A stretch of 38,900 nucleotides of DNA from Magnetococcales bacterium (lineage in GTDB: Bacteria > Pseudomonadota > Magnetococcia > Magnetococcales > JADFWU01), in NCBI GenBank assembly GCA_015234045.1, contig JADFWU010000031.1:1-38900 (forward strand), read 5' to 3'. Made by a program: the position numbers and the translations under genes. Positions 12,148 to 25,290 of this stretch are shown here, in pieces. Position 1 is the stretch's first letter. Each line of letters opens with the position of its first letter. A model generated the notes under the pieces. It made no database searches. It was not told the DNA's origin and was given only the letters and a program-made list of their open reading frames with translations.

Positions 12148-13956
12148 GTGTCACATCATAATCATACAGTGATTATTCGTTCTGAGCACGCCCGAGTTGT
12201 ACTTTTTGTGGTTTTTATACTTTGTGTGACGATAGGTGTTGAGTTTTTCGCGCATTTTGGGCTTTGGGGTTCGGCGTGGCGGTTTCATTTTTCAGCGATT
12301 GTATTGGTTGGATTTTTAGTGACGTTTTTTGTGTATTTTGTGCGTATTTATGTGATTGGCTATAGGCCGTTGCGAGTCATTAATCATACGCATGGTCAGT
12401 TTAGTCAGGTGATTATCAACTCAAGCATGCCCATGGCATTTATTTCTGACAATGGGACGTATCTTATCCGCAATGAACCATGGAAAACAGTGATAGAACA
12501 CTCTGGCGGTGCAGAGGGTTTGCGTTTACGTCAACAGGATTTGCCGGGGAATTATTCAATTCATGAGTGGGTCATAAAACCGTGTATGGCAGGTCGTATT
12601 GCGTCAGGTCATGGGAATGTTTTACAGGTGAACAGTGATCGAATGATGTCGTATCGCTGGCAGGCACAACCCATTTATGGGTGTCCTGGTGAGGTGAGTG
12701 GGATACTCATTTCGGTTTGGCGTGATGCGGTGGATGGTCTTGAAGAGACCGTTGTCAGTGTGGATCAGAGTCGAGAAGAGAATGAGGCGGCGCATGAGGC
12801 GAAAGACACATTTTTAGCGACCATGAGTCATGAGATTCGCACGCCATTGCATGGCATTGTTGGTGTTACTGAACTGTTATCGGACACGCGATTAACGCCG
12901 GAGCAGAAGCGCTACACCGGGATGATCCGCAAATCTGGCGCGGCTTTATTAGAGATTTTAAACAACATTCTTGACCTATCCAAGATTGAAGCGGAGCGGC
13001 TGGAATTTGAGGGTAAGGATTTTGATTTACATGCGTTGTTAGGTCATTTAACGGCGATGTTTGGCGAATTATCGGCACAGAAAGGGGTTGGTTTCAGGTG
13101 TCGGATTGCATCGAATGTACCGAAATACGTTCGGGGTGATAAGACGCGGGTGCGTCAGATTCTTATGAATTTATTATCCAACGCGATTAAGTTTACCGAG
13201 CACGGAGAAGTAACGCTTTCGGCACAGATGGATGAAGAGCGTGGGGGATGGTTGTTTCTTGATGTAAATGACAGTGGTATTGGCTTAGAGCCGGAGCAGA
13301 TTGGGCGTATTTTCGAATCATTTACGCAGGCGGACGGTTCGACTACGCGTCGATTTGGTGGGTCTGGGTTGGGTCTTACAATCAGCTTGAAATTGGCTCG
13401 GATGATGGGAGGGGCTATTTCCGTTCGGAGTCTACCGGGGCAGGGGAGTCGTTTTCGGCTGTTGTTGCCTGTTGCTGCACCATTGGATTATCCGCAGTTT
13501 ATTAAGGGGATCAATAAAGAAGAGGACGTTGGGCGTTTATTTTCTGGGGCGGATAAGCGTGTTTTGATTGCTGAGGATGATTCTATTAGTCGAGAGATAT
13601 TGGTTGGGATGTTACAGGGGTTGGGGATTGTTCATGTGGATGCGGTGACCAATGGTAAAGAGGCTGTTGGGCGGGTTAGGGATGGGAAGTATGATTTGGT
13701 ATTTATGGATTGTCGGATGCCGGTTATGGATGGGTATGAGGCGTGTCGGGTTTTGCGTCAGGATGAGGAAAAAGGTGATGATGGGGCGGGGTGGCGAACG
13801 CCGGTTGTTGCGATTACGGCGAATACGATGCCGGAGGATCGGGATCGGTGTTTGGAGGCTGGGATGGATGATTTGTTGACCAAGCCGGCGAAGAGGGCGG
13901 CGTTGTGGGAGGTGTTGAATCGGTGGTTAGGCAGGGGAAGAGGGGAGAAGCAGTAA
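12148..13956 (+). CDS. Hybrid sensor histidine kinase (PAS-like, HisKA, HATPase_c, receiver)
   Basis: A membrane protein of 602 residues with two N-terminal helices (about 16-36 and 48-70), a PAS-like segment (about 84-200), a HisKA domain with MSHEIRTPLHG (H228), HATPase_c with N-box NLLSNAIKF (341-349), DSGIG (375-379) and GGSGLGL (404-410), and a C-terminal receiver with D521 in VFMDCRMPVMDG and a K in LLTKPAK. The GTG start follows CCGGGG at suitable spacing. It is divergent from the NarX-like kinase, 103 bp away. The last 350 bp of the coding strand are strikingly poor in C and rich in G, unlike the NACHT gene next door. The phosphotransfer partner is not visible. Confidence 0.92.
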   Translation: MSHHNHTVIIRSEHARVVLFVVFILCVTIGVEFFAHFGLWGSAWRFHFSAIVLVGFLVTFFVYFVRIYVIGYRPLRVINHTHGQFSQVIINSSMPMAFISDNGTYLIRNEPWKTVIEHSGGAEGLRLRQQDLPGNYSIHEWVIKPCMAGRIASGHGNVLQVNSDRMMSYRWQAQPIYGCPGEVSGILISVWRDAVDGLEETVVSVDQSREENEAAHEAKDTFLATMSHEIRTPLHGIVGVTELLSDTRLTPEQKRYTGMIRKSGAALLEILNNILDLSKIEAERLEFEGKDFDLHALLGHLTAMFGELSAQKGVGFRCRIASNVPKYVRGDKTRVRQILMNLLSNAIKFTEHGEVTLSAQMDEERGGWLFLDVNDSGIGLEPEQIGRIFESFTQADGSTTRRFGGSGLGLTISLKLARMMGGAISVRSLPGQGSRFRLLLPVAAPLDYPQFIKGINKEEDVGRLFSGADKRVLIAEDDSISREILVGMLQGLGIVHVDAVTNGKEAVGRVRDGKYDLVFMDCRMPVMDGYEACRVLRQDEEKGDDGAGWRTPVVAITANTMPEDRDRCLEAGMDDLLTKPAKRAALWEVLNRWLGRGRGEKQ

Positions 13957-13958
13957 CC

Positions 13959-14146
13959 GGGATAGGTCTGGAAAGGGCCAAGGCCCTTTCCAGTGGGTCG
14001 AACAGGGCAAAGCCCTGTTTTAAAGAAAAAGGCGCGTAAGAATCCGGAGCATTTTTTGCCCAAAGGGCGGAAAATGCGTAGCGCCGTGATCCAAAGGATC
14101 ACACAACCGGAGGCCCAAAGGGCCGACAAACCCCCACCAAAAAACC
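13959..14146 (+). repeat. Hairpin-cluster element, copy A
   Basis: Starts two bases after the stop of the hybrid kinase and contains five tandem hairpins: 13968-13993 (12-bp stem, AA loop), 14002-14018 (ACAGGGC/GCCCTGT), 14031-14085 (GGCGC/GCGCC enclosing GCATTTT/AAAATGC and GCCC/GGGC), 14086-14102 (GTGATCC/GGATCAC) and 14112-14124 (GGCCC/GGGCC). Every hairpin after the first has an AAA loop. It is homologous, in opposite orientation, to 18141-18328, with compensatory changes in several stems. It also lies just beyond the NACHT stop on the other strand, so it may act as a terminator for both genes. Confidence 0.85.
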
Positions 14147-14199: not shown

Positions 14200-17100
14200 T
14201 CACCACAGGGATAAAAAGTGCTCTTGTTGTTGAATTATTTCAACAAATCGTTCGGGTTCAAGATCTTCTGCCCGCCAGAGGGCAGGGGGCATGCGTGTAT
14301 CATTGGGGTTTTTGAAAGCACACAGGTTCAGGCCATTACCGGACCATGTGACTTTTCGTTCGTTGGTGAGATTATCAATGGCCAGATGGCCGCCGCCAGC
14401 AGCTAGGATGACAATTTTTAACATTTTTCCTGACTCGATATCCCACCAAATAAAGGTTCTGTCCTCGCTTGCTGTTTGAATGAGTTGTCTATTGTCCAAA
14501 GTAATAAAGCGTGCATCTGTAATAGGTGCGCGGTGTCCTTTGAAACAGTTTATTTCCGTACCTTCTTCAGAATCCCAAAGTCGGGCGGTATTGTCTCGGC
14601 TTGCGGTGAGTATCTGTTTGCCATCTTTGGAGAATACAGCGCTTCGGACCCAATGATCGTGCCCCTTGAACATGTGAATGAGAGCGCCATTTTCAGCGGA
14701 GAAGATGCGAGCGGTGCGGTCATCAGAGGCGGTGACCACGCGATTCCCGTCGCTGGAAAAAGCGGCGCTATTGACGGAATCATCGTGCCCCTTGAGCATG
14801 TGAATGAGAGCGCCATTTTCAGCGGAGAAGATGCGAGCGGTGCTGTCATAAGAGGCGGTGACCACGCGATTCCCGTCGCTGGAAAAAGCGGCGCTATTGA
14901 CCAAATGATCGTGCCCCTTGAGCATGTGAATGAGAGCGCCATTTTCAGCGGAGAAGATGCGAGCGGTGCTGTCAGAAGAGGCGGTGACCACGCGATTCCC
15001 GTCGCTGGAAAAAGCGGCGCTTCGGACCCAACCATCGTGCCCCTTGAGCATGTGAATGAGAGCGCCATTTTCAGCGGAGAAGATGCGAGCGGTGCTGTCA
15101 TAAGAGGCGGTGACCACGCGATTCCCGTCGCTGGAAAAAGCGGCGCTATTGACGGAATCATCATGTCCCTTGAGGATATGAATGAGAGCGCCATCCACAA
15201 TGGAAATGATATGGGCGGTACCATCATCAAATCCGAGAACAGCATATTTACCATCTGGAGAAATATCACCACATTGCAGAGTATGAGTTCTGCCAACGTC
15301 CAAAGTTCTTGAGAGTAGGCCGCTGGTCAGATCCCAAAAGCAGATCCTGTTATCTGAACCGAACGTGCAATAGATCTGGTCATTAAATCGTAATACACCG
15401 CCAGTCAAATCAGTCACTGAATGTCCTTGTTGCAAAATGAGCGTACCATTTTGATTGCTCTCAATCAGCGCATCAGGGCAATTGATGCTGTGCGGTGTTA
15501 AGCAGCGCTTGACTTGGCTTTCATTCCATTGGCTATCTGATAGATCAGCCCAGGCAAAGCGGACAGCAGTGCATATGGCGTGATTGAAACAGGCGCTTTT
15601 TAGATCGGTTTTGATCAGATTGGCAGAATCAAGGGTTGCGTGACTGAAATCTGCACTTTCAAAACAACCTGATGAACCATTTGCATAATATAGATTGGCT
15701 TTTTGAAATAAAGCATTATTGAATTTTCCATGGCACAGAGAGGCACGGATAAGAGATGCGCGGCGGAAATTTGTTTTGTGTGCAGTAGAATTATTTAAGT
15801 TTGAAAAATCAAGTTGCGTATCGGCAAAATCAGCGCCACTGAGATCAGCGCCATGCAGGTTGGTATTCATCAGATTAGCACCGGAAAAGTGCCCGTTGAC
15901 CAAATAGGCACCGGATAGATCCATATCGTTCAAGCGGGCACCATGTAGCCGTGCTCTATCTGGCCAAAATGCCTGCATTCGTTCGGTAGGTGTGTTGGTG
16001 GCCCTATAGGTTTCATCAGGCCCGATATGATCCACTCGGGAAAGGTAAAGCGCCAAACGCAGGGCGTTTTCACTGATTTTTTCTTGGTACGTTTCTGAAA
16101 GGATCGCTTTGATCTCGGTTAAAAAATCCGGCCAGGGAATTTGAGTGTCCAGATAGTCACCAAAAAATTGAATGAGTTCGGGGCTGAGTGATGCTGTGCT
16201 CAATACGGAACGAAATGATTTTTTAGGATGTTGCCAACGCCGCACCAGATGACGCGCCATGAAATATTCCAAAAAACTCCGATGAGAAAAACGGTAGTTT
16301 CCATGGCTGTCTCGGGTAAGAAATGCGGCATAGCGCATTTCAAGATCTACTTTGATCGGGTCCAGCTCATCAGGAAATAGATCTCCCGCCTTACGCTCAA
16401 CAAGGGCCAGTAGTTCCCGGTAATGTATCTGATGTTTAGCATCTTTCCATAATTTCTCTGCTAACTCTTCAAGTAGAGCAATGCGTTGTTTGGCGTTGGT
16501 AACTCCGGTCTGTTGACCCAACCACTGATTGGTGAATTTTTCATAGAGCATGGTGGCTGTTACCCGCTCTGGATTCTCTTTCATCAAATCAGGCAGGTTC
16601 TTGAAAATCATTTCAAGAAGGACTGGACGCCGGGTTAGCTCGGTAAGGTCACTGGTTTTTTCAATGAATTCCTCTGCTTTTTTAAGTTGCTCTTTATCGT
16701 TAATGCGTGTGCTGAGGTAACGATCAACATCGTCTGAGCTGAAGTAGCAAAGCTGATCCAACGCCGCCTCATAAGAGCGGGCTTCCTTGCCAAGCAGGGA
16801 TAAATCATCACCAGTACGAAAGTAATCAGACTCAATTTGTTTAGTGTCTTTAAAAAAATGGGTTCGGCTGGTAATCAATACCCGGCCCTGACCTGTTTTC
16901 GAGGCCAGAGCCAAGGCTTTAAACTGACTATCCACACTCCGCCCAATGGTGGCCGCGCCCATCTCATCAAAGGCATCCAGCAGAAGAACAATCTCTCCCT
17001 TTTCCAACAGATAGAGAAATAGTTTTGGTGGACCAAACCACCCCCGTTCTTCTCGAAGTGCTTCTTGAATAAGATTCTCAAGGCTGGTGGCATTAGGGAA

Positions 17101-17793
17101 TTTTTTCAGATCAATGGCCAGCGGTTTTGGCGCTTCGGGATCACTCAACGCTTTTTCAGCCAATTCCGCAGCTAATTTATTGAAAAATACTGACTTTCCC
17201 GTTCCATAATCACCCAGTAAAAGCCACAATTTCTTACCAACTACGCCACGACTCCACTGTTGTGCATAAGGGAGAAGATCTGTTTTTTCATCACCGCTTC
17301 TATCTTCAAGCGCTACATGTTGATTAATGTAATGTTTTGCAACCGGATCACTTGAATATTGCAGGACCAGATCTGCCATATACTTTTTAAATTGAAACCG
17401 TTTTTCAAGAAGCTGATCAGGTGTAAAAGTATTAATATTCAACTTGCTGGCAGCTGTACGTGCCGGATAGGTAAAGCCGCGGGCAACAAACATTCCTCGC
17501 GCATGCATTCCCTTTGCTTCATCACCATCCAACCATATTTTAAATAGATGAATCTTCTCTTTGCTTATATCTTCTTTATGATCCTTACATTCCACTAAAA
17601 ATGGTGAATCATCAATATCATCCAACTTTCTTGCAACCAAATCGACCCGGTTACCATCAATTAACTGTTCTCGTTCCAAAGTGTAGCCAAGAAAGCTCAG
17701 GAGATTAGCGATATGGTTTTCAAACCGGTCACCTTTTTCTTTCGGATGTGGTTGTCCAGAACTTTTTGACAATTTATCTTTATCTTCACTCAT
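14200..17793 (-). CDS. STAND-type NACHT protein: Mrr/PD-(D/E)XK nuclease, NACHT, pentapeptide repeats, WD40 repeats
   Basis: A 1197-residue predicted cytoplasmic protein. Residues 20-135 form a restriction-endonuclease-like fold: KGDRFENHIANLL with E25, then D51 in GNRVDLVAR and E68-C-K70 in FLVECKD. NACHT NTPase: Walker A GDYGTGKS (194-201), Walker B IVLLLDAFDE (268-277), sensor RVLITSR ending at R310, winged-helix-like LTRRPVLLEM (387-396) and the FSHRSFLEYFMAR helix (502-514). Pentapeptide repeats A(D/N)LxxA cover about 616-755. WD40 repeats cover about 795-1150; four are almost identical 42-residue units with GHD and DSTARIF motifs. The layout (nuclease effector, signal-transducing NTPase, repeat sensor) matches STAND anti-phage or immune receptors such as Avs and bNACHT. 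A defence role is inference. It is a single gene with its own upstream region, enclosed by inverted hairpin clusters. Confidence 0.88.
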   Translation of the reverse strand: MSEDKDKLSKSSGQPHPKEKGDRFENHIANLLSFLGYTLEREQLIDGNRVDLVARKLDDIDDSPFLVECKDHKEDISKEKIHLFKIWLDGDEAKGMHARGMFVARGFTYPARTAASKLNINTFTPDQLLEKRFQFKKYMADLVLQYSSDPVAKHYINQHVALEDRSGDEKTDLLPYAQQWSRGVVGKKLWLLLGDYGTGKSVFFNKLAAELAEKALSDPEAPKPLAIDLKKFPNATSLENLIQEALREERGWFGPPKLFLYLLEKGEIVLLLDAFDEMGAATIGRSVDSQFKALALASKTGQGRVLITSRTHFFKDTKQIESDYFRTGDDLSLLGKEARSYEAALDQLCYFSSDDVDRYLSTRINDKEQLKKAEEFIEKTSDLTELTRRPVLLEMIFKNLPDLMKENPERVTATMLYEKFTNQWLGQQTGVTNAKQRIALLEELAEKLWKDAKHQIHYRELLALVERKAGDLFPDELDPIKVDLEMRYAAFLTRDSHGNYRFSHRSFLEYFMARHLVRRWQHPKKSFRSVLSTASLSPELIQFFGDYLDTQIPWPDFLTEIKAILSETYQEKISENALRLALYLSRVDHIGPDETYRATNTPTERMQAFWPDRARLHGARLNDMDLSGAYLVNGHFSGANLMNTNLHGADLSGADFADTQLDFSNLNNSTAHKTNFRRASLIRASLCHGKFNNALFQKANLYYANGSSGCFESADFSHATLDSANLIKTDLKSACFNHAICTAVRFAWADLSDSQWNESQVKRCLTPHSINCPDALIESNQNGTLILQQGHSVTDLTGGVLRFNDQIYCTFGSDNRICFWDLTSGLLSRTLDVGRTHTLQCGDISPDGKYAVLGFDDGTAHIISIVDGALIHILKGHDDSVNSAAFSSDGNRVVTASYDSTARIFSAENGALIHMLKGHDGWVRSAAFSSDGNRVVTASSDSTARIFSAENGALIHMLKGHDHLVNSAAFSSDGNRVVTASYDSTARIFSAENGALIHMLKGHDDSVNSAAFSSDGNRVVTASDDRTARIFSAENGALIHMFKGHDHWVRSAVFSKDGKQILTASRDNTARLWDSEEGTEINCFKGHRAPITDARFITLDNRQLIQTASEDRTFIWWDIESGKMLKIVILAAGGGHLAIDNLTNERKVTWSGNGLNLCAFKNPNDTRMPPALWRAEDLEPERFVEIIQQQEHFLSLW
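14637..15172 (-). repeat. Near-identical 126-bp tandem repeats encoding WD40 blades
   Basis: About 4.2 copies of a 126-bp unit (42 codons). The same landmark G recurs at 14762, 14888, 15014 and 15140. Copies are nearly identical, including at synonymous sites. Differences fall on a few codons: the two after GHD, the N/R before SAAF, and the residues around the second Asp (Y, S or D; S or R). Because 126 is a multiple of 3, the opposite strand also shows a long repetitive open frame, which is an artefact. Copy number could vary between strains. Confidence 0.95.
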
Positions 17794-18358
17794 AGCAATA
17801 TCACACCAATCCTATAAATAAATACACCACGCCCCAAAAAAAACAGCTTAACCCATTCTATCAGTTTGCATGGCGCGTTACTCTGTTCAATTAACGGCGG
17901 ATATCTGCTATTGCCTGGTTTTTCATAGGATTCAATTCCCTATGAAACAGCGCATTGTGCCCTAATCCGTGGCACCGCCTTGTGTTGAATGACAATGGTA
18001 AGTAAGCCGTTGATATGCTCAACCAGGCCACCATCTGTACCTCTTGTGTGGCTTTTTATATTGGTCTTATAGGCTGGTTTGGCGGGCTTGTTTTGTTGGT
18101 TTCTTATTTTGTGGTGCAGCCCTTTGGGGCTTTGTTGAGGGATTTTTTTTGGGGCGTTTGGTCGGCCTTTGGCCTCCGGTTGTGTGGCCCTTTGGGCCAC
18201 GGCGCTACGCATTTTTCGTGCTTTGCACAAAAAATGCTCCGGATGCTGACGCGCCTTTTTACTTTAAAACAGGGCTTTGCCCTGTACGACCCACTGGAAA
18301 GGGTCTTGACCCTTTCCAGACCTATCCCTTTGGTCGCTCGGCCTTTGGCCTCTCTCTT
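17794..18358. other. Gene-free region upstream of the NACHT gene
   Basis: Contains the 5' region of the NACHT gene (17794 to about 17950, AT-rich near the start, no convincing promoter boxes) and then hairpin-cluster copy B. Extra CC-AAA-GG style hairpins flank the copy at 18118-18131 and 18340-18350. Open frames in this stretch are low-complexity readings of the hairpins and I reject them as genes. Confidence 0.6.
18141..18328 (-). repeat. Hairpin-cluster element, copy B
   Basis: Read on the minus strand it begins about 30 bp after the stop of the ABC permease and aligns along its length with copy A (13959-14146). Stems: 18294-18319, 18269-18285, 18201-18255 (outer) with 18209-18237 (inner), 18184-18200 and 18164-18174. 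Versus copy A, paired positions change together: hairpin 1 C-G to T-A, hairpin 3 GCCC/GGGC to GTGC/GCAC, hairpin 4 GTGATCC/GGATCAC to GTGGCCC/GGGCCAC. The AAA loops and the spacers are largely conserved. It may also end the permease transcript. Confidence 0.85.
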
Positions 18359-20422
18359 CTACCGTCCTGCATTCAAATCCGAATGCAATAAATCCGATGG
18401 CGTCGTTCCCGGTCTCAACGGCAACTTCAAACCCAACAAAAACGCAACAACCATAACCACCATAAACACAGCACCAATGGTCACCATCACCTCCCAAAAC
18501 GGCAAAGGCAATACCTCCAATCCATGCCCCGGCGGTAACCGGTCCTGATACTCAGTCAAAATCTGATCAAACCCACGCTCTAAAAAGTGACGCAACAACG
18601 GCACAAGACCAAAAATCGTAATCAATGCCGCCGCTAACGTAGCCCAACCCAACTGAACCAATAACTTAGCGTGCAAAGTCAACCAAGTAAAACCATGGCT
18701 CAATAAAATACCGTAATGATTCCGGCGATGATCAACTAACGTGCCAATCTGAGCAAATAATAACGTAGAAAGCAACGCAATGAACGTGATCGCATAAACC
18801 GGAACCATGGTCGCTAAAATGTCACTGAGCAGATTAAAACGGTTCAACGCATCCTGATACATAGGATGAATGTTCAATGCCTGACGACCGTCTGGTGTCC
18901 GAATCGACATCAATGTCTCAATCACATCACTGATGCTGGTAGGATCTCGCGTAAACACATGAATCGCACCAAATGAGTTGCCATAACTCGTCACATCCCA
19001 AGGAACAAATTGCCCGTGCTCATCGCTGGCACTCTCCCAACTCGGACAAAGACTCCCACGCATGGCATCATTGCGCGGTAAACGATGACAGGGCATCCAT
19101 AACCAATTATGGCCGTCATGGTTTAATGTGTCTGGCTGCGCTTTCTCACCATCGCGTTGATCAATAGTGCCGTCAAAACCTTCCTGAGCCGGAGCAGAAA
19201 CCGCCCCACTGGCCGAACGGCCAAAAATCTTCGGTGGCTGACAGCGATCCGTCTGAATCTGTGGTAAACCACTCAAACCCGTCGCGTTGACCTCTTCCTG
19301 TACACACAACGCATATTGAATAATCTGATCCCGTGGATAGGATGGGTCCATCAATCGATCCCATTGATCACGGTCAGAAATACCCTGATTGCCCGGCGCA
19401 AATGTGAGTTCAGATAGATGATGTGCAGCTTGAAGCGCATGATATGTGCTCAATGGAAATAAAAATGCAATCTTCTCCATCGCCGGAATGTGACTCACCC
19501 AAGTGACCTTGAATGGTACTAAATGTTCCTCATGCGATACCGTAGCTTTCAACCATAAAGTCTCCAGCATCGTTAACGAATTCTGCCATAAACGCGGTGG
19601 AAGCTTGTTAAACTCCTCTTTGGATAAGAAAGGCTCCAGTGATTCGCGGTAAGCTCCGTAATCAAATTGCTCGGCGAAGAGATTCTCGCTCAAAATAATC
19701 TCAAGCGGTAAGCCAAGCCATTCAGGCTTTTCTTCAACAGTACCCTGATGTTTCGACTGTAACGTTGGTAAATTTTTACCAAAAATGATATTGGCCGCTT
19801 TGTCAAAAGGTGGTGTGCGCCACCAGGGCAAGTCGTCCTCAATATTGGCCTTCATGCCCGATTTGCCCAACTGCCATAACGGATCATCTGGATAAACCGC
19901 CCAACCCACAAAAGGTGGTGACGATTTCCAAACACTGCTATTGGGCATCTGAACCCGTGGACTGTTGTTGGCTAAACGGCGATAAGGATGTGCTGAAAAA
20001 AGAGGCTCCGGTTCCGCCGCCTGTACACCATGATTCGGTGCCGGTGCAGCCGGCACAGCCGGTTTGCTCAAACGATCCAACTGTTCCAACAGTTGACGCT
20101 GAATGCCCTCGTTGTTCTCCCAATGCGAAGTGACCCAAATCGGAACACCATGTGGACGCAATGTGCCCAATAATGAGTCCGTCAAACGATCCAAAAATCC
20201 TGATCGACTGCCGACTAATAATAACGCCAGACAAATCACCAATGAGAGTAGGAGCGTTAACCACGCAAAGTCACGCCCACCTTCCTCGCAACCAAATGGC
20301 TTGCAGCGAAATGATCGACGAAATGCCGTACTGCCCATGGAAAACCATACCGGCAATAGACGGATTCTTTTCTTGGCCGTGGGCGGTACAACCCCAGCCT
20401 GAGATGAATTTTGTTGGCTCAT
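18359..20422 (-). CDS. FtsX/MacB-like ABC transporter permease
   Basis: An inner-membrane permease of 687 residues. One transmembrane helix lies near the N-terminus (about 50-70), followed by a very large periplasmic domain (about 75-525) and three C-terminal helices (about 535-560, 585-605, 650-675), the last followed by LKLPLRPG. This one-plus-three topology is that of FtsX/LolC/MacB permeases, which act as mechanotransmission or lipoprotein-handling machines rather than classic import channels. The periplasmic domain does not look like a standard MacB domain. Its ATG overlaps the ATPase stop by 4 bp (ATGA). Partners are the ABC ATPase and the VWA protein encoded upstream. The substrate is unknown. 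Confidence 0.85.
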   Translation of the reverse strand: MSQQNSSQAGVVPPTAKKRIRLLPVWFSMGSTAFRRSFRCKPFGCEEGGRDFAWLTLLLSLVICLALLLVGSRSGFLDRLTDSLLGTLRPHGVPIWVTSHWENNEGIQRQLLEQLDRLSKPAVPAAPAPNHGVQAAEPEPLFSAHPYRRLANNSPRVQMPNSSVWKSSPPFVGWAVYPDDPLWQLGKSGMKANIEDDLPWWRTPPFDKAANIIFGKNLPTLQSKHQGTVEEKPEWLGLPLEIILSENLFAEQFDYGAYRESLEPFLSKEEFNKLPPRLWQNSLTMLETLWLKATVSHEEHLVPFKVTWVSHIPAMEKIAFLFPLSTYHALQAAHHLSELTFAPGNQGISDRDQWDRLMDPSYPRDQIIQYALCVQEEVNATGLSGLPQIQTDRCQPPKIFGRSASGAVSAPAQEGFDGTIDQRDGEKAQPDTLNHDGHNWLWMPCHRLPRNDAMRGSLCPSWESASDEHGQFVPWDVTSYGNSFGAIHVFTRDPTSISDVIETLMSIRTPDGRQALNIHPMYQDALNRFNLLSDILATMVPVYAITFIALLSTLLFAQIGTLVDHRRNHYGILLSHGFTWLTLHAKLLVQLGWATLAAALITIFGLVPLLRHFLERGFDQILTEYQDRLPPGHGLEVLPLPFWEVMVTIGAVFMVVMVVAFLLGLKLPLRPGTTPSDLLHSDLNAGR

Positions 20423-21207
20423 AGGTCCAAAGGATTACCTTGATCACGGCCCTGAAGATGACATCGACCATGAGACACAACCAACCGGTGCGTCACACGG
20501 CTATCCAAGGCGTCGGAAAGATGATGAGTCACCCACATGAATAGACGATTGCTCTCTCCAAGCCACTCTTCAACAATAGACATAACCTCTTTACGCGTGG
20601 CCGCGTCCAGGTTGCCTGTAGGCTCATCAGCAAATAGTACACATGGATCGTGGATCATCGCCTGGGCCAAGGCTACACGCTGTAGCTGACCGCCGGATAA
20701 TTCGTTCGGATAGCGTTCGAGAAGTTCAGAAACAGAATCCTCGCCGCCAATCGTACCGCCACCCTGACCGCACAGCAATACCCGGTTTACCATCCGGTAA
20801 ACTTTCTCATCCATCTCGGAATCAGATAAATTGCGCTGTAATGCCAATGGATAGCGTAAATTTTCACCCACTTTGAGATACGGTGAAAGTGTGCTCTTCT
20901 GATGGGCAAAACCAAAATAACTGCGCCGTACTTCTTTCATGGTCAAGCTTGATTTGCTCTTTACTAAACCATGCTGATCAAACGCAGCCGTATGTCCATC
21001 AGGAAAGGTCCATAAAACCTGACCCTCTTTAGGCAGTTTCAAAAATGAGGACAAATAGAGCAGGGTGCTCTTACCACTTCCGCTTCGACCCAAAACCGGC
21101 AGCCGCCCAGAAATGGCCTCCGCATCAATCTCAAGTCGATCTACTTCCAGATTGAACGTTTGTCCCCAGCCAACTTTGCTTGAGTCGATTCGGCAACCCC
21201 AGTTCAA
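20419..21207 (-). CDS. ABC transporter ATPase (LolD/MacB type)
   Basis: Cytoplasmic ATPase of 262 residues that powers the overlapping permease. Walker A is GRSGSGKS, the Q-loop region is FGFAHQKS, the signature is LSGGQLQRVALAQAM, Walker B is CVLFADEPTGNLD and the H-loop is VTHH. The GNLD extension after Walker B is typical of the LolD/MacB/FtsE group. The start is TTG at 21207, overlapping the stop of the VWA gene in a TTGA; AAAGGA lies about 8 nt upstream, which supports this unusual start and tight translational coupling. A short insertion occurs between the Q-loop and signature (GQGGGTIGGEDS). Confidence 0.92.
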   Translation of the reverse strand: MNWGCRIDSSKVGWGQTFNLEVDRLEIDAEAISGRLPVLGRSGSGKSTLLYLSSFLKLPKEGQVLWTFPDGHTAAFDQHGLVKSKSSLTMKEVRRSYFGFAHQKSTLSPYLKVGENLRYPLALQRNLSDSEMDEKVYRMVNRVLLCGQGGGTIGGEDSVSELLERYPNELSGGQLQRVALAQAMIHDPCVLFADEPTGNLDAATRKEVMSIVEEWLGESNRLFMWVTHHLSDALDSRVTHRLVVSHGRCHLQGRDQGNPLDL

Positions 21208-23867
21208 GGCAGATATTCCTTTGGAATCCAGTAACCACGCCGTCCACCAAATGAGTGTGATAGACGATACTCTTTATTAGGACCAAGTGGCTCCGCTTCA
21301 ATGGTACTCAAAATGCGCGGTAATGCCCGACCATTGGATGTAGCGTCAGGACAACGGGCTGGACTGTAAAAGCCCACTTTGAATACCGGTCGCGTAAAGT
21401 TGCGCTCAACCACTTCCAGCATCTCTTTTGAACGAATCGCCCAAAGTGCCAAGCGTCGTAACTCACAATTTGGCACCGCCTGAATGGTCATGCCTGCTTT
21501 GTCCAGAATCGGTTGCTGTTTGTTGTTTACCACAATTAAATGATTGCTATCGTCCCGAGCAACACGATTGGCCGAAATGGCCGCAACCTTGTAACTCAAT
21601 AATGGACTGTGACGACGAACCGGCAATCCACCACGACGCTGTGCATATTCCGCCGGCGTTTCACCCGATACATCAATCGGTGGCTTGCGAATCTCCTGCT
21701 GTAGACCCAATACCAATGCACTGATCAAAGCACGCCGTAACTGTTGCTCCGGTAACTCGTAATAGCCTTCAAAGCCACGCAAAATCCGAATCCACGAAGA
21801 AAGCGCACTGGATGAAATCCATAGCTCCTCAACGATATCGTCATTGGCTTCAATATAGCCAACCTGCGTGGTGTCAAACACCTGATCCCGGCAGTTTTTC
21901 ACATCTTTGCCACAGGCATCATGTTCCAAGACATGCCAAAATACACCCGGAATATCAACACGCTCACGGCGTAAACGATCAATAACCTGACTGAGCGCCT
22001 TACCACCGCGAACATCCAAAATGATCTCATTGATCAGTGTGCTACTGGCAAACTTGCCTACCGTCTGAACCAGTCTTGCCACCAACTTCTCTTCACCCAT
22101 GCGGAAGAAATGATCGTCCACATTGGAATCCGATGGCAAACTGTCACTCAACAAGCTGCGTGCCTGTGTCTCAAACTTCCGATACGCACGCATATAGGCT
22201 GTTGGATGCTTGGCCTGATCCTTACGGTTAGGCGTTTGAATAAAAAAGCTGATAACGTTGTTGCCCTTAACGCCCGGTGTGTCACCACCTAACAGCAATC
22301 GCGCCAAATCACCACGTGTTGTCGGGTTGCCATACTTATCAATGGAACGCGCACGACCATCCTCAAGAATGACTGTCTGACGACGCTTAAAACCATGGTC
22401 GCCAATCACAAACAAGAGCTTCAAATTTTCAGGACAGGAAACAATATCCTTCTGTAGCGTCTGAACCAGACCGCCATACATGTTCTCTTCGTAGTCGTCC
22501 TGATCATCCGCCGTGGACTGAACCTGAGCAATCTCTCGCTCAAAATCTTCATAAGCAGCAGTCCGAGACGCAGCATTCATCTCGCACATGTCCGGCAAAG
22601 GAAAACCTTCACCAACTCCTAAACCAGGACCAGAAGTAACCACCTTGTCGGCATAAGGATCACGATATACCCGAAAACCAAACCGAAATTCCGTCTCATC
22701 AAAGCCCGGCGTACTTTTCAGTGTGGCGATGATCTCTTGAATCACACCGCGCTTCTCAATATTACCGCGCACCGCATCAATAACCGCATCCATACTGGCC
22801 GTTGCATCCAGTAGGAAGAATACATCAACCTTCTTCTTGGCGGAAAGCGATTCAAGGGAATCCAACTGTTCAGGAATAATCTGACGTGCTAAATCAGACG
22901 AAATAGCAAACTTGCCGTTGCCCAACGCACGACCCACCAAACCCGGTTGCGCCAGCGCGACTTTATAGAACAAACGTTGATCGCTGTTCTTGTCCGCCAA
23001 ATCTTCAGGACGAACATGTTTGTCATTCTTGTCCACCAAGTCCAACACCGGAATACGCGATGGACTCTTGAACCAGGCATTGCCACCCTTAACAGGATTA
23101 CACGCTTCAGGATTCTGTGACACCGCATCCTTCAAACGCGAATACGCACAGATGGTGCCTGCATCATCGCCATAAGGCGATTTGATATGCTCGGCAGGAC
23201 GCAAACCAAACGCATTGTTCCAGCGAAAGCCATTGGATTTTTTAACCCAACCCAGCAGCATATCGCCCTCTTCCAGGCGGTACCGATCAGCCAATAAAAC
23301 AGACTGCTCACGCTCATCAAACACAAAATACATCTGGAAACGCGCTGCACCTTCGATGCATGCCTTCCCATCAACACAGCCTACCAATTCAGGATCACGA
23401 TAGACCGAAACCATTGGTTCGGACTGGTCCTGTTGACGCGCTGTAATATCTGTTTTAATAAAGAATTTTATTTCGAGACCCGTATCGCTTTTAATCGGCA
23501 GATTGCGACAGAGTAAATTTTCCTTATCAGCCCAACCGGTCTGTGATTTACCACCACGACCCGGCAGAGTTCGGAGTTGAACCCGTTTGCCTTTCTCCGA
23601 AAGAATTTCCGCCTGTAGATTAAACGGCAACTGAGCAGCGATCTTGCGCGTCTCAGCGTCAGCATGTAACGGCGTGTGATGACGCAATACACGTGCGACA
23701 CCAGCCCATTTCAAGCTGTTGTTATGATAGAAATTACTGAAATCAAACTCCGCGCAGGATCCCGGTGATGCCTGTACGTTCTCGGTGGAAACCAATAACG
23801 CCATGCACACCAGAAAACTGGTCACAATTTGAAGCGGTAATCGACGAAAATCCATAAAGGAAAACAT
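21204..23867 (-). CDS. Exported von Willebrand factor A protein with SH3-like domain
   Basis: A predicted periplasmic protein of 887 residues from ATG 23867, chosen because GAGGG lies 8 nt upstream; the frame is also open to a TTG at 23882. The signal peptide ends near ENVQA. A bacterial-SH3-like segment follows (about 50-120, ending near QTGWADKENLLC). A VWA domain begins near residue 347 with VFFLLDATASMDAV, where DATAS is the DxSxS-type MIDAS motif, and continues with FGFRVYRDP and LLFVIGDHG. The C-terminal 300 residues show no recognised domain. Many cysteines suggest disulfides in the periplasm. It overlaps the ABC ATPase gene by 4 bp, so it probably works with that transporter, perhaps as a metal-dependent binding or scaffold subunit. 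Confidence 0.83.
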   Translation of the reverse strand: MFSFMDFRRLPLQIVTSFLVCMALLVSTENVQASPGSCAEFDFSNFYHNNSLKWAGVARVLRHHTPLHADAETRKIAAQLPFNLQAEILSEKGKRVQLRTLPGRGGKSQTGWADKENLLCRNLPIKSDTGLEIKFFIKTDITARQQDQSEPMVSVYRDPELVGCVDGKACIEGAARFQMYFVFDEREQSVLLADRYRLEEGDMLLGWVKKSNGFRWNNAFGLRPAEHIKSPYGDDAGTICAYSRLKDAVSQNPEACNPVKGGNAWFKSPSRIPVLDLVDKNDKHVRPEDLADKNSDQRLFYKVALAQPGLVGRALGNGKFAISSDLARQIIPEQLDSLESLSAKKKVDVFFLLDATASMDAVIDAVRGNIEKRGVIQEIIATLKSTPGFDETEFRFGFRVYRDPYADKVVTSGPGLGVGEGFPLPDMCEMNAASRTAAYEDFEREIAQVQSTADDQDDYEENMYGGLVQTLQKDIVSCPENLKLLFVIGDHGFKRRQTVILEDGRARSIDKYGNPTTRGDLARLLLGGDTPGVKGNNVISFFIQTPNRKDQAKHPTAYMRAYRKFETQARSLLSDSLPSDSNVDDHFFRMGEEKLVARLVQTVGKFASSTLINEIILDVRGGKALSQVIDRLRRERVDIPGVFWHVLEHDACGKDVKNCRDQVFDTTQVGYIEANDDIVEELWISSSALSSWIRILRGFEGYYELPEQQLRRALISALVLGLQQEIRKPPIDVSGETPAEYAQRRGGLPVRRHSPLLSYKVAAISANRVARDDSNHLIVVNNKQQPILDKAGMTIQAVPNCELRRLALWAIRSKEMLEVVERNFTRPVFKVGFYSPARCPDATSNGRALPRILSTIEAEPLGPNKEYRLSHSFGGRRGYWIPKEYLP

Positions 23868-24027
23868 GGAACAAGCCCTCAAGCTTCAACTCAGCCTACC
23901 GAACAAGACGCAAACTATGAACAGTTTACTATTCGGTTTTGACGGCATTGTCCGTATAAATGGCCTCTGAGGCAACAGTTTACAATTCTAACGGTGAAGA
24001 AATACGATTTGATCGCACATACGGCAG

Positions 24028-25290
24028 CTAGGGTTGAGTAGTACCAACCTCATGAACCAGGCGAAATCCAGCAACCGAAATCATTGCAGGCATGCAGGTT
24101 TCTCGACTTGTCACTGACACTGCAACCCAATCATCTTCACCGATTAAATAGTAGCCATTGTCACATGGTGAACTGGACCATTCAGGCACACCACGCAACA
24201 GTTTTTCAGGCCGTTCATCCTCGGCAACACCTTGACTATAGATGACCGTAGCACCCCACTGAAGTCGGCTCGGCAAGGCAAAAGCACAGCCGGTCAGTTC
24301 GCTCAACCAGGTTGCATAGTCACTGGCCGCTTCCCAAGAGATGCCGCGCACGGATTTAGAGTTGGCATCATTACGATTCCAATGTAGACCAATACGCATC
24401 AGTAGATCATTTTTGTCAGGACTATCAGGCAGACTCTGAACATGATCTACATATTTTTTGAACTGTTTTGAGCTAACTTCATCTTTTTGAATGACAAACG
24501 GTGTGTCAATATCAATATAATTCAAACGATGTGCCTGTAAAAATAGTGCCGGATCAGAAGCTGAATCCAGCCCCGACAGATCATAACGCCCTGCCGGTAT
24601 CATGAATAACTCAACCTGAGTTTCACGGAGCGATTCTGGCTGGCAAGCAGGTGTTAACGTGATAGCACTGCTCTCCTTAACCGGTGCCATGACCTGTGCT
24701 TTTGTCTCACTCTCTCTTGGTTCAGGTCGAGAGTGAGGTTTTGATTCCGCCTTTGTCGTCAGTTCATTAAGTTCTGAAAGATCAGGAATATCAATGTTAT
24801 CCGTAACATTTTCCGGGGCAGCAGGAAGTGAATTGGATTCCGTTGTATCAGGCATTTCTTCAGCGGTCACCTCAGGTGCAGGTGATAGTATGTTCTCATT
24901 GGCCGCACTCGGCTCTGGAATAGGTTCAGCAATCTCAGAAAGCGGGCTCACAGGCGTATTCGGCACTGTGTCCAAAGTGGAAAGAGAGCTGTTGAGCGTT
25001 TGAACCGGTGTTGTGTTTTGTTTGACATCCGAGTTGCGTTTGGCAATAGATGGTGTTGTCGATGGTTCATCAGGCTGGTTAACCAAGGTCCAGCCGATCC
25101 AAAGAACCAGAGCAACTATAATGAGATGAACGAATCGATTACGCCCTGGACCACTGTTTGAACGCCGTTTATGACGATGGCCACGTGTGGTCAATGGTTC
25201 AGGTTTAGGCGGCGGCTGTTCTTCAACCACAGGTTGTGGTTTTGAGGGAGCAGCCTGGCCTGGCCGTTTTTCTGGGATTTTGATATCCAA
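24028..25290 (-). CDS. Membrane-anchored FGE/SUMF1-like (formylglycine-generating-enzyme fold) protein
   Basis: A 420-residue protein with a proline-rich cytoplasmic tail (1-50), one transmembrane helix (about 53-71), a long Ser/Thr/Pro/Glu linker (72-215) and a C-terminal FGE-sulfatase-like domain (about 225-415). Family hallmarks are the FVIQKDEVSSKQFKKYV start, VRGISWEAASDYATWLSELTG, FALPSRLQWG and the final AGFRLVHE. The paired catalytic cysteines of true formylglycine-generating enzymes are not evident, since only C399 lies near the expected site, so it may be a binding domain. An in-frame TAA two codons upstream leaves TTG 25290 as the first start, with no clear ribosome site. It lies 160 bp upstream of the VWA-ABC genes on the same strand and may belong with them. 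Confidence 0.75.
   Translation of the reverse strand: MDIKIPEKRPGQAAPSKPQPVVEEQPPPKPEPLTTRGHRHKRRSNSGPGRNRFVHLIIVALVLWIGWTLVNQPDEPSTTPSIAKRNSDVKQNTTPVQTLNSSLSTLDTVPNTPVSPLSEIAEPIPEPSAANENILSPAPEVTAEEMPDTTESNSLPAAPENVTDNIDIPDLSELNELTTKAESKPHSRPEPRESETKAQVMAPVKESSAITLTPACQPESLRETQVELFMIPAGRYDLSGLDSASDPALFLQAHRLNYIDIDTPFVIQKDEVSSKQFKKYVDHVQSLPDSPDKNDLLMRIGLHWNRNDANSKSVRGISWEAASDYATWLSELTGCAFALPSRLQWGATVIYSQGVAEDERPEKLLRGVPEWSSSPCDNGYYLIGEDDWVAVSVTSRETCMPAMISVAGFRLVHEVGTTQP

What the first reader, a model, noticed from the sequence alone, without database searches (positions are those of the whole stretch)
13959..14146. Hairpin cluster with compensatory changes and conserved G.U pairs: a candidate structured RNA family
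Copies A (13959-14146) and B (complement of 18141-18328) share five hairpins, AAA loops and spacers. Differences fall in pairs that keep the stems: C-G to T-A in hairpin 1, GCCC/GGGC to GTGC/GCAC in hairpin 3, two pairs in hairpin 4, one pair fewer in hairpin 5. In hairpin 3, T opposite G occurs twice in copy A and once in copy B, where the other becomes T-A; such pairs are stable only as RNA U.G. This argues for selection on a transcript. Both copies begin just 3' of a stop codon, in the sense direction of that gene, so a 3'-UTR role (termination, mRNA stability, small-RNA source) is plausible.
Basis: partly seen in the sequence, partly recalled or inferred. Interest (0 to 1): 0.72.

Follow-up and report, generated by a model that had tools for sequence, protein, structure and literature searches.

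The report
Mobile five-hairpin repeat, Magnetococcales-type bacteria
The two hairpin clusters belong to a mobile, highly folded repeat family that has spread to dozens or hundreds of places, often just after genes, in the genomes of one bacterial order; the fold is truly conserved, but the copies hop around rather than staying with particular genes.

Summary
Copies A (13957-14146, +) and B (18145-18328, -) share five hairpins. In the four hairpins that align pair by pair, every A/B stem difference keeps pairing: five pairs changed on both sides, one U.G to U-A. Each copy starts 0-31 nt after a stop codon, in sense.

The reading changes once relatives are added. It is an interspersed repeat: 19 blastn matches in its own genome, matches in 30 of 48 genomes of its order, none in about 264 sampled genomes outside it. 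Across the order the sequence is largely replaced but the fold is kept (30 of 32 pairs with two-sided changes).

The copies are mobile. In one relative they lie inside 242-263-bp elements with inverted ends and 8-10-bp target duplications. For another, 34 of 35 orthologous sites in congeners are empty. B's own site has no full cluster in 27 relatives.

So: a new clade-restricted family of structured miniature mobile repeats, similar in kind to BOX/MITE and REPIN elements, with a 3'-end preference in the forms without inverted ends. A regulatory role in mRNA is possible but untested. The conserved-G.U argument is weak. Why the same core sits in vehicles with different ends is unexplained.

The parts
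13957..14146 (+). Copy A of the repeat (five-hairpin core plus A-rich tail), beginning directly after the TAA of the histidine kinase gene 12148-13956
13968..13993 (+). Hairpin 1 of A (11 bp, CAAG loop)
14001..14019 (+). Hairpin 2 of A (AAA loop)
14031..14085 (+). Hairpin 3 of A: outer GGCGC/GCGCC stem, 13-nt 5' and 3-nt 3' internal loop, inner 13-bp stem with two T.G pairs; the layout conserved across the order
14086..14102 (+). Hairpin 4 of A (7 bp, AAA loop)
14112..14124 (+). Hairpin 5 of A (5 bp, AAA loop) followed by GAC
18145..18328 (-). Copy B of the repeat, 30-31 nt after the TAG of the FtsX-like permease gene 18359-20422(-); faces A across 4 kb
18294..18319 (-). Hairpin 1 of B
18269..18285 (-). 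Hairpin 2 of B
18201..18255 (-). Hairpin 3 of B (outer and inner stem; one T.G and one T-A where A has two T.G)
18184..18200 (-). Hairpin 4 of B
18164..18174 (-). Hairpin 5 of B (4 bp, AAA loop)
18340..18350 (-). Extra small AAA-loop hairpin between the stop codon and B

Best explanation
A and B are two non-autonomous copies of a clade-restricted, mobile, highly structured interspersed repeat. SHOWN: the family is multicopy in the genome and the order; its five-hairpin core is kept by covariation while sequence turns over; copies are inserted into sites that are empty in relatives; one form has terminal inverted repeats (TIRs) and target duplications; other forms lack these and in G022 and G020 are doublets or have inverted double-hairpin ends; forms without TIRs sit mostly just 3' of genes, in sense or between convergent genes. 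INFERRED: the elements are moved in trans (the G019 form by a DDE transposase, judging from its 8-10-bp duplications; the form without TIRs by an unknown enzyme); copies survive best where they do least harm, between the 3' ends of genes; once there they are transcribed as part of the mRNA 3' end and fold into a row of hairpins that may slow 3'-5' exonucleases or attenuate read-through, as proposed for BOX and REP elements. The fold is kept because the element itself needs it (as ssDNA for copying, or as RNA to be tolerated) rather than because each host gene needs it.
For: Copy number: (30/48 genomes; the limit of 71 matches reached in three). Clade restriction. Covariation. Mobility: 12 of 18 complete TIR elements in G019 have target duplications with at least 7 matching bases, 0 of 306 in mispaired controls; 34 of 35 orthologous gene ends in congeners lack the cluster, with flanking homology resuming on the far side in many of them (e.g. 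proB-proA in L092, about 400-425 bp extra); B's host gene has no full cluster in 27 relatives. Doublets: all four facing pairs read in G022 share related spacers; all five close neighbours in G020 face each other; G020 long units end in inverted H2'-H1'. 3' preference.
Against: No transposase was tied to the family: no Y1-type transposase in the own genome, and the RAYT-like genes examined in relatives are not flanked by the cluster. No target duplication or exact end was found for A and B. The same core occurs with TAAACCGCA ends, with CAGGGCAATCGCATTTG ends and with no TIR, which a simple one-transposase MITE does not predict. The sense 3' bias in G020 could also mean host selection.
Confidence: 0.75

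Rival explanations
1. A host-selected 3'-UTR structured RNA: each cluster stabilises the upstream mRNA, ends transcription or yields a 3'-derived small RNA, and is kept for that reason.
For: Sense 3' position in G000 (13/16) and G020 (23/26, 17 within 30 bp of the stop); strong fold and covariation; no copy between divergent genes in the G020 set.
Against: 34/35 orthologous sites are empty; B's gene has no full cluster in 27 relatives; G019 copies keep the same fold although 12/18 have an upstream gene on the opposite strand; copies lie inside gene rows; no T-tract at A or B.
Confidence: 0.15
2. REPIN-like ssDNA element: the hairpins work as single-stranded DNA during copying by an HUH/Y1-type nuclease acting in trans; RNA folding is incidental. 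(A sub-version of the best explanation, so the two confidences overlap.)
For: Inverted doublets, 3' and convergent location as for REPs (PMC3733652), near-pure Watson-Crick stems without G.U enrichment in G020, Y1_Tnp genes in 33/48 genomes of the order.
Against: No Y1_Tnp match in the own genome, which is 93% complete; RAYT-like genes examined not flanked by the cluster; a TIR form with DDE-like duplications exists; units are far longer than REPs.
Confidence: 0.3
3. Stem complementarity is kept mechanically: template switching at replication forks repairs imperfect palindromes, giving 'compensatory' changes without selection on any fold.
For: Stems are almost perfectly Watson-Crick; in G020 whole stems are swapped (L091-L094 against the others).
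Against: The layout of H3 (outer stem, long 5' loop, inner stem, 3-nt 3' loop) is kept over the order although it is not palindromic; conserved T.G pairs in G000 were not corrected.
Confidence: 0.15

Closest known systems
BOX elements of Streptococcus pneumoniae (with RUP, SPRITE; PMC3049150)
   Same: Modular, folded, dispersed in high copy, thought non-autonomous mobile, over-represented between convergent genes, transcripts predicted to fold
   Different: No sequence comparison with BOX was run; here a five-hairpin core with an asymmetric internal-loop stem is conserved across a whole order of other bacteria
REPINs / REP-BIME elements (PMC3116915, PMC3733652)
   Same: Palindromic, 3' and convergent-gene location, inverted doublets as apparent replicative unit, within-genome turnover
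   Different: Arms of about 170 nt with several hairpins instead of 20-40 bp; no RAYT gene linked; no Y1_Tnp in the own genome
Bacterial MITEs
   Same: In G019 a 242-263-bp non-coding element with TIR CAGGGCAATCGCATTTG and 8-10-bp target duplications (ISAs1-like ends, from memory); in G000 a 292-bp form with TAAACCGCA ends
   Different: A and B themselves have no TIR; the core is shared by forms with unlike ends

Membership tests
MITE (non-autonomous DDE element) | Terminal inverted repeats | tested here: inconclusive
   Present in G019 copies and in some G000 copies (L025, L027), absent at A and B
MITE (non-autonomous DDE element) | Target-site duplication | tested here: inconclusive
   12/18 in G019, 0/306 control; not seen at A and B
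MITE (non-autonomous DDE element) | Autonomous partner with the same ends | not tested
REP/REPIN | Short (20-40 bp) palindrome with GTAG or CGTC tag | tested here: not met
   Cores are about 130-190 nt with five hairpins; no such conserved tag seen in the alignments
REP/REPIN | Inverted doublet as unit | tested here: met
   G022 and G020; in the window A and B face each other but 4 kb apart
REP/REPIN | RAYT gene in the genome, flanked by the repeat | tested here: not met
   No Y1_Tnp in G000; RAYT-like loci in relatives without adjacent clusters
BOX element | boxA-boxB-boxC modules of related sequence | not tested
   No BOX sequence was compared; resemblance is in organisation only
Known Rfam RNA family | Match at the gathering score | tested here: not met
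   No match in the window or in seven loci
Intrinsic terminator | GC-rich hairpin followed by a T tract | tested here: not met
   No terminator-like site at A or B

The most novel reading that the evidence does not exclude
The five-hairpin core is a functional structured module (RNA or single-stranded DNA) that has been carried by several unlike mobile vehicles within one bacterial order, and is kept because of what the core itself does, for example protecting or insulating the transcripts it lands in.
Probability: 0.25. Interest if true: 0.7.

Novelty: new variant of a known kind. Interest (0 to 1): 0.45.

Why it matters
It adds a large, apparently undescribed family of structured mobile repeats in what are probably the magnetotactic cocci. 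The family offers a natural test of why bacterial repeat elements keep elaborate folds: the same core exists with and without terminal inverted repeats, in and out of 3' ends, in dozens of genomes, with empty sites for comparison. It also warns that strong covariation plus a 3'-UTR position can come from a mobile repeat rather than a host regulatory RNA.

Tried and rejected
Rfam scan: nothing. RAYT/REP origin: not supported for the own genome. Intrinsic terminator: no T tract at A or B. Spread outside the order: an H4 pattern gave two stray hits in other taxa, model R2 none outside the order, the H1 pattern one single hit outside. The class search returned the same 48 genomes as the order and added nothing. 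Cargo between facing pairs: ordinary genes (an SmpB-like protein, a lipoprotein-like ORF), no transposase recognised (by eye). Literature: no paper on such repeats in this group found with the searches run. Integron attC sites and group II introns were considered from general knowledge and set aside because copies are scattered at ordinary chromosomal genes.

Full report
Check of the observation. Copies A (13957-14146, +) and B (18145-18328, -) align at 88% identity and hold the same five hairpins at the stated places. In the 43 base pairs of hairpins 1-4, the two copies differ at five pairs on both sides, always to another pair, and at one pair on one side (U.G to U-A); none is broken. Both fold far better than shuffled sequence (z -7.45 and -6.90). 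A begins right after the TAA of a sensor kinase gene, B 30-31 nt after the TAG of an FtsX-like permease gene.

It is a repeat family. The own genome (3.65 Mb, 117 contigs) holds 19 blastn matches to A. A covariance model of nine copies (R1) gives 29 matches at E<=1, of which about 16 are near full length and strong. Many copies are modular: hairpins 1-2 come in two versions, and parts are duplicated in tandem.

Relatives. Only the own genome is held in its family; the order holds 48 genomes. R1 finds clusters in nine of them; a broader model (R2, from 69 matches) finds them in 30 of 48, reaching the limit of 71 scored candidates in G019, G020 and G022. R2 finds none in about 264 genomes of the phylum outside the order (only 11 candidates per genome were scored). 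A pattern for hairpin 1 occurs up to 841 times in one order member, and once in one genome outside. One order member is a single contig of 4,719,581 bp; from memory this is the size of Magnetococcus marinus MC-1, so the order is probably Magnetococcales. No tool named it.

The fold is conserved, the sequence is not. On the 69-match alignment 97.7% of cells pair, 30 of 32 pairs have changes on both sides, and no shuffle or slide comes near (the alignment was fitted to the structure, so it leans that way). Independent alignments of nine own-genome copies and 27 G020 copies, made by MAFFT, point the same way with fewer varying pairs. The layout of hairpin 3 (outer GC stem, 8-13-nt 5' loop, inner stem, 3-nt 3' loop) recurs in the order members read.

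Mobility. In G019 the core lies in 242-263-bp elements with inverted ends CAGGGCAATCGCATTTG...CAAATGCG(A/C)TTGCCCTG; 12 of 18 have direct repeats with at least 7 matching bases (8-10 bp long) next to the ends, against 0 of 306 mispaired controls. In the own genome two copies have TAAACCGCA ends in a 292-bp element. For 14 G020 host genes, 35 orthologous gene ends were read in five congeners: one carries the cluster. In many of them homology resumes on the far side, with about 170-450 extra bp in G020, also inside gene pairs such as proB-proA. B's own host gene has orthologues in 42 of 48 genomes; in the 27 relatives read here none carries the full core, although G039 and G036 have a related double or single hairpin there.

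Units and place. In G022 the four facing pairs read share related spacers, and in G020 long units end with hairpins 2 and 1 inverted, as in REPIN doublets (PMC3116915). Forms without inverted repeats prefer sense positions 3' of a gene (own genome 13/16, p=0.011; G020 23/26, p=4e-5), with 17 G020 copies within 30 bp of the stop; the inverted-ended G019 form does not (6/18; G020 against G019 Fisher p=3e-4). These counts use simple ORF calling, the own-genome set mixes copies with and without inverted ends, and copies between convergent genes are sense to one neighbour by definition. REPs and BOX elements show similar 3' and convergent-gene preference (PMC3733652, PMC3049150).

Interpretation. 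The best account is a clade-specific family of structured miniature mobile repeats. What moves the forms without inverted repeats is unknown: the own genome has no Y1-type transposase, and RAYT-like genes in relatives are not flanked by the cluster. What the fold does is also open. Its retention in vehicles with unlike ends suggests that the core matters in itself, as RNA or as single-stranded DNA. No T-tract terminator is present at A or B, and copies lie inside gene rows, so termination is not the likely role. Attenuation or mRNA 3'-end protection is plausible by analogy only.

Verdict. Observation confirmed; the RNA-family reading is partly supported; the object is ordinary in kind (mobile folded repeats) but apparently undescribed, large, and unusual in its conserved multi-hairpin core.

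Noticed in passing
window 14200-17793 (-): 1197-aa protein with pentapeptide and WD40 repeats (a NACHT-type NTPase part is suggested only by reading the sequence), lying between the facing copies A and B; its WD40 part is built of 126-bp repeats up to 89% identical in DNA (14477-15232). It looks like a conflict-type gene with recently expanded repeats.
   Followed up: partly
window 18359-25290 (-): Gene row of FtsX-like permease, ABC ATPase, an 892-aa protein without Pfam match and an FGE-sulfatase-domain protein; the permease is conserved in 42 of 48 order genomes.
   Followed up: no
L022, L029, L035 spacers (own genome): Arrays of tiny perfect hairpins with AAA loops (GGCCAAAGGCC, CCCCAAAGGGGCGTAC and others) in other intergenic regions of the genome.
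   Followed up: no
L218 (G036): About 150-bp near-perfect inverted-repeat insertion with hairpin-1-like ends directly 3' of the orthologue of B's host gene.
   Followed up: no
L059, L074, L078, L082, L087, L092, L093 (G020), about 50-110 nt after the core: A sixth hairpin whose stem differs between copies and mostly stays complementary; L093 looks like a mismatched chimera (read by eye).
   Followed up: no
G024 (whole genome): 841 matches to the hairpin-1 pattern in one 4.5-Mb genome.
   Followed up: no
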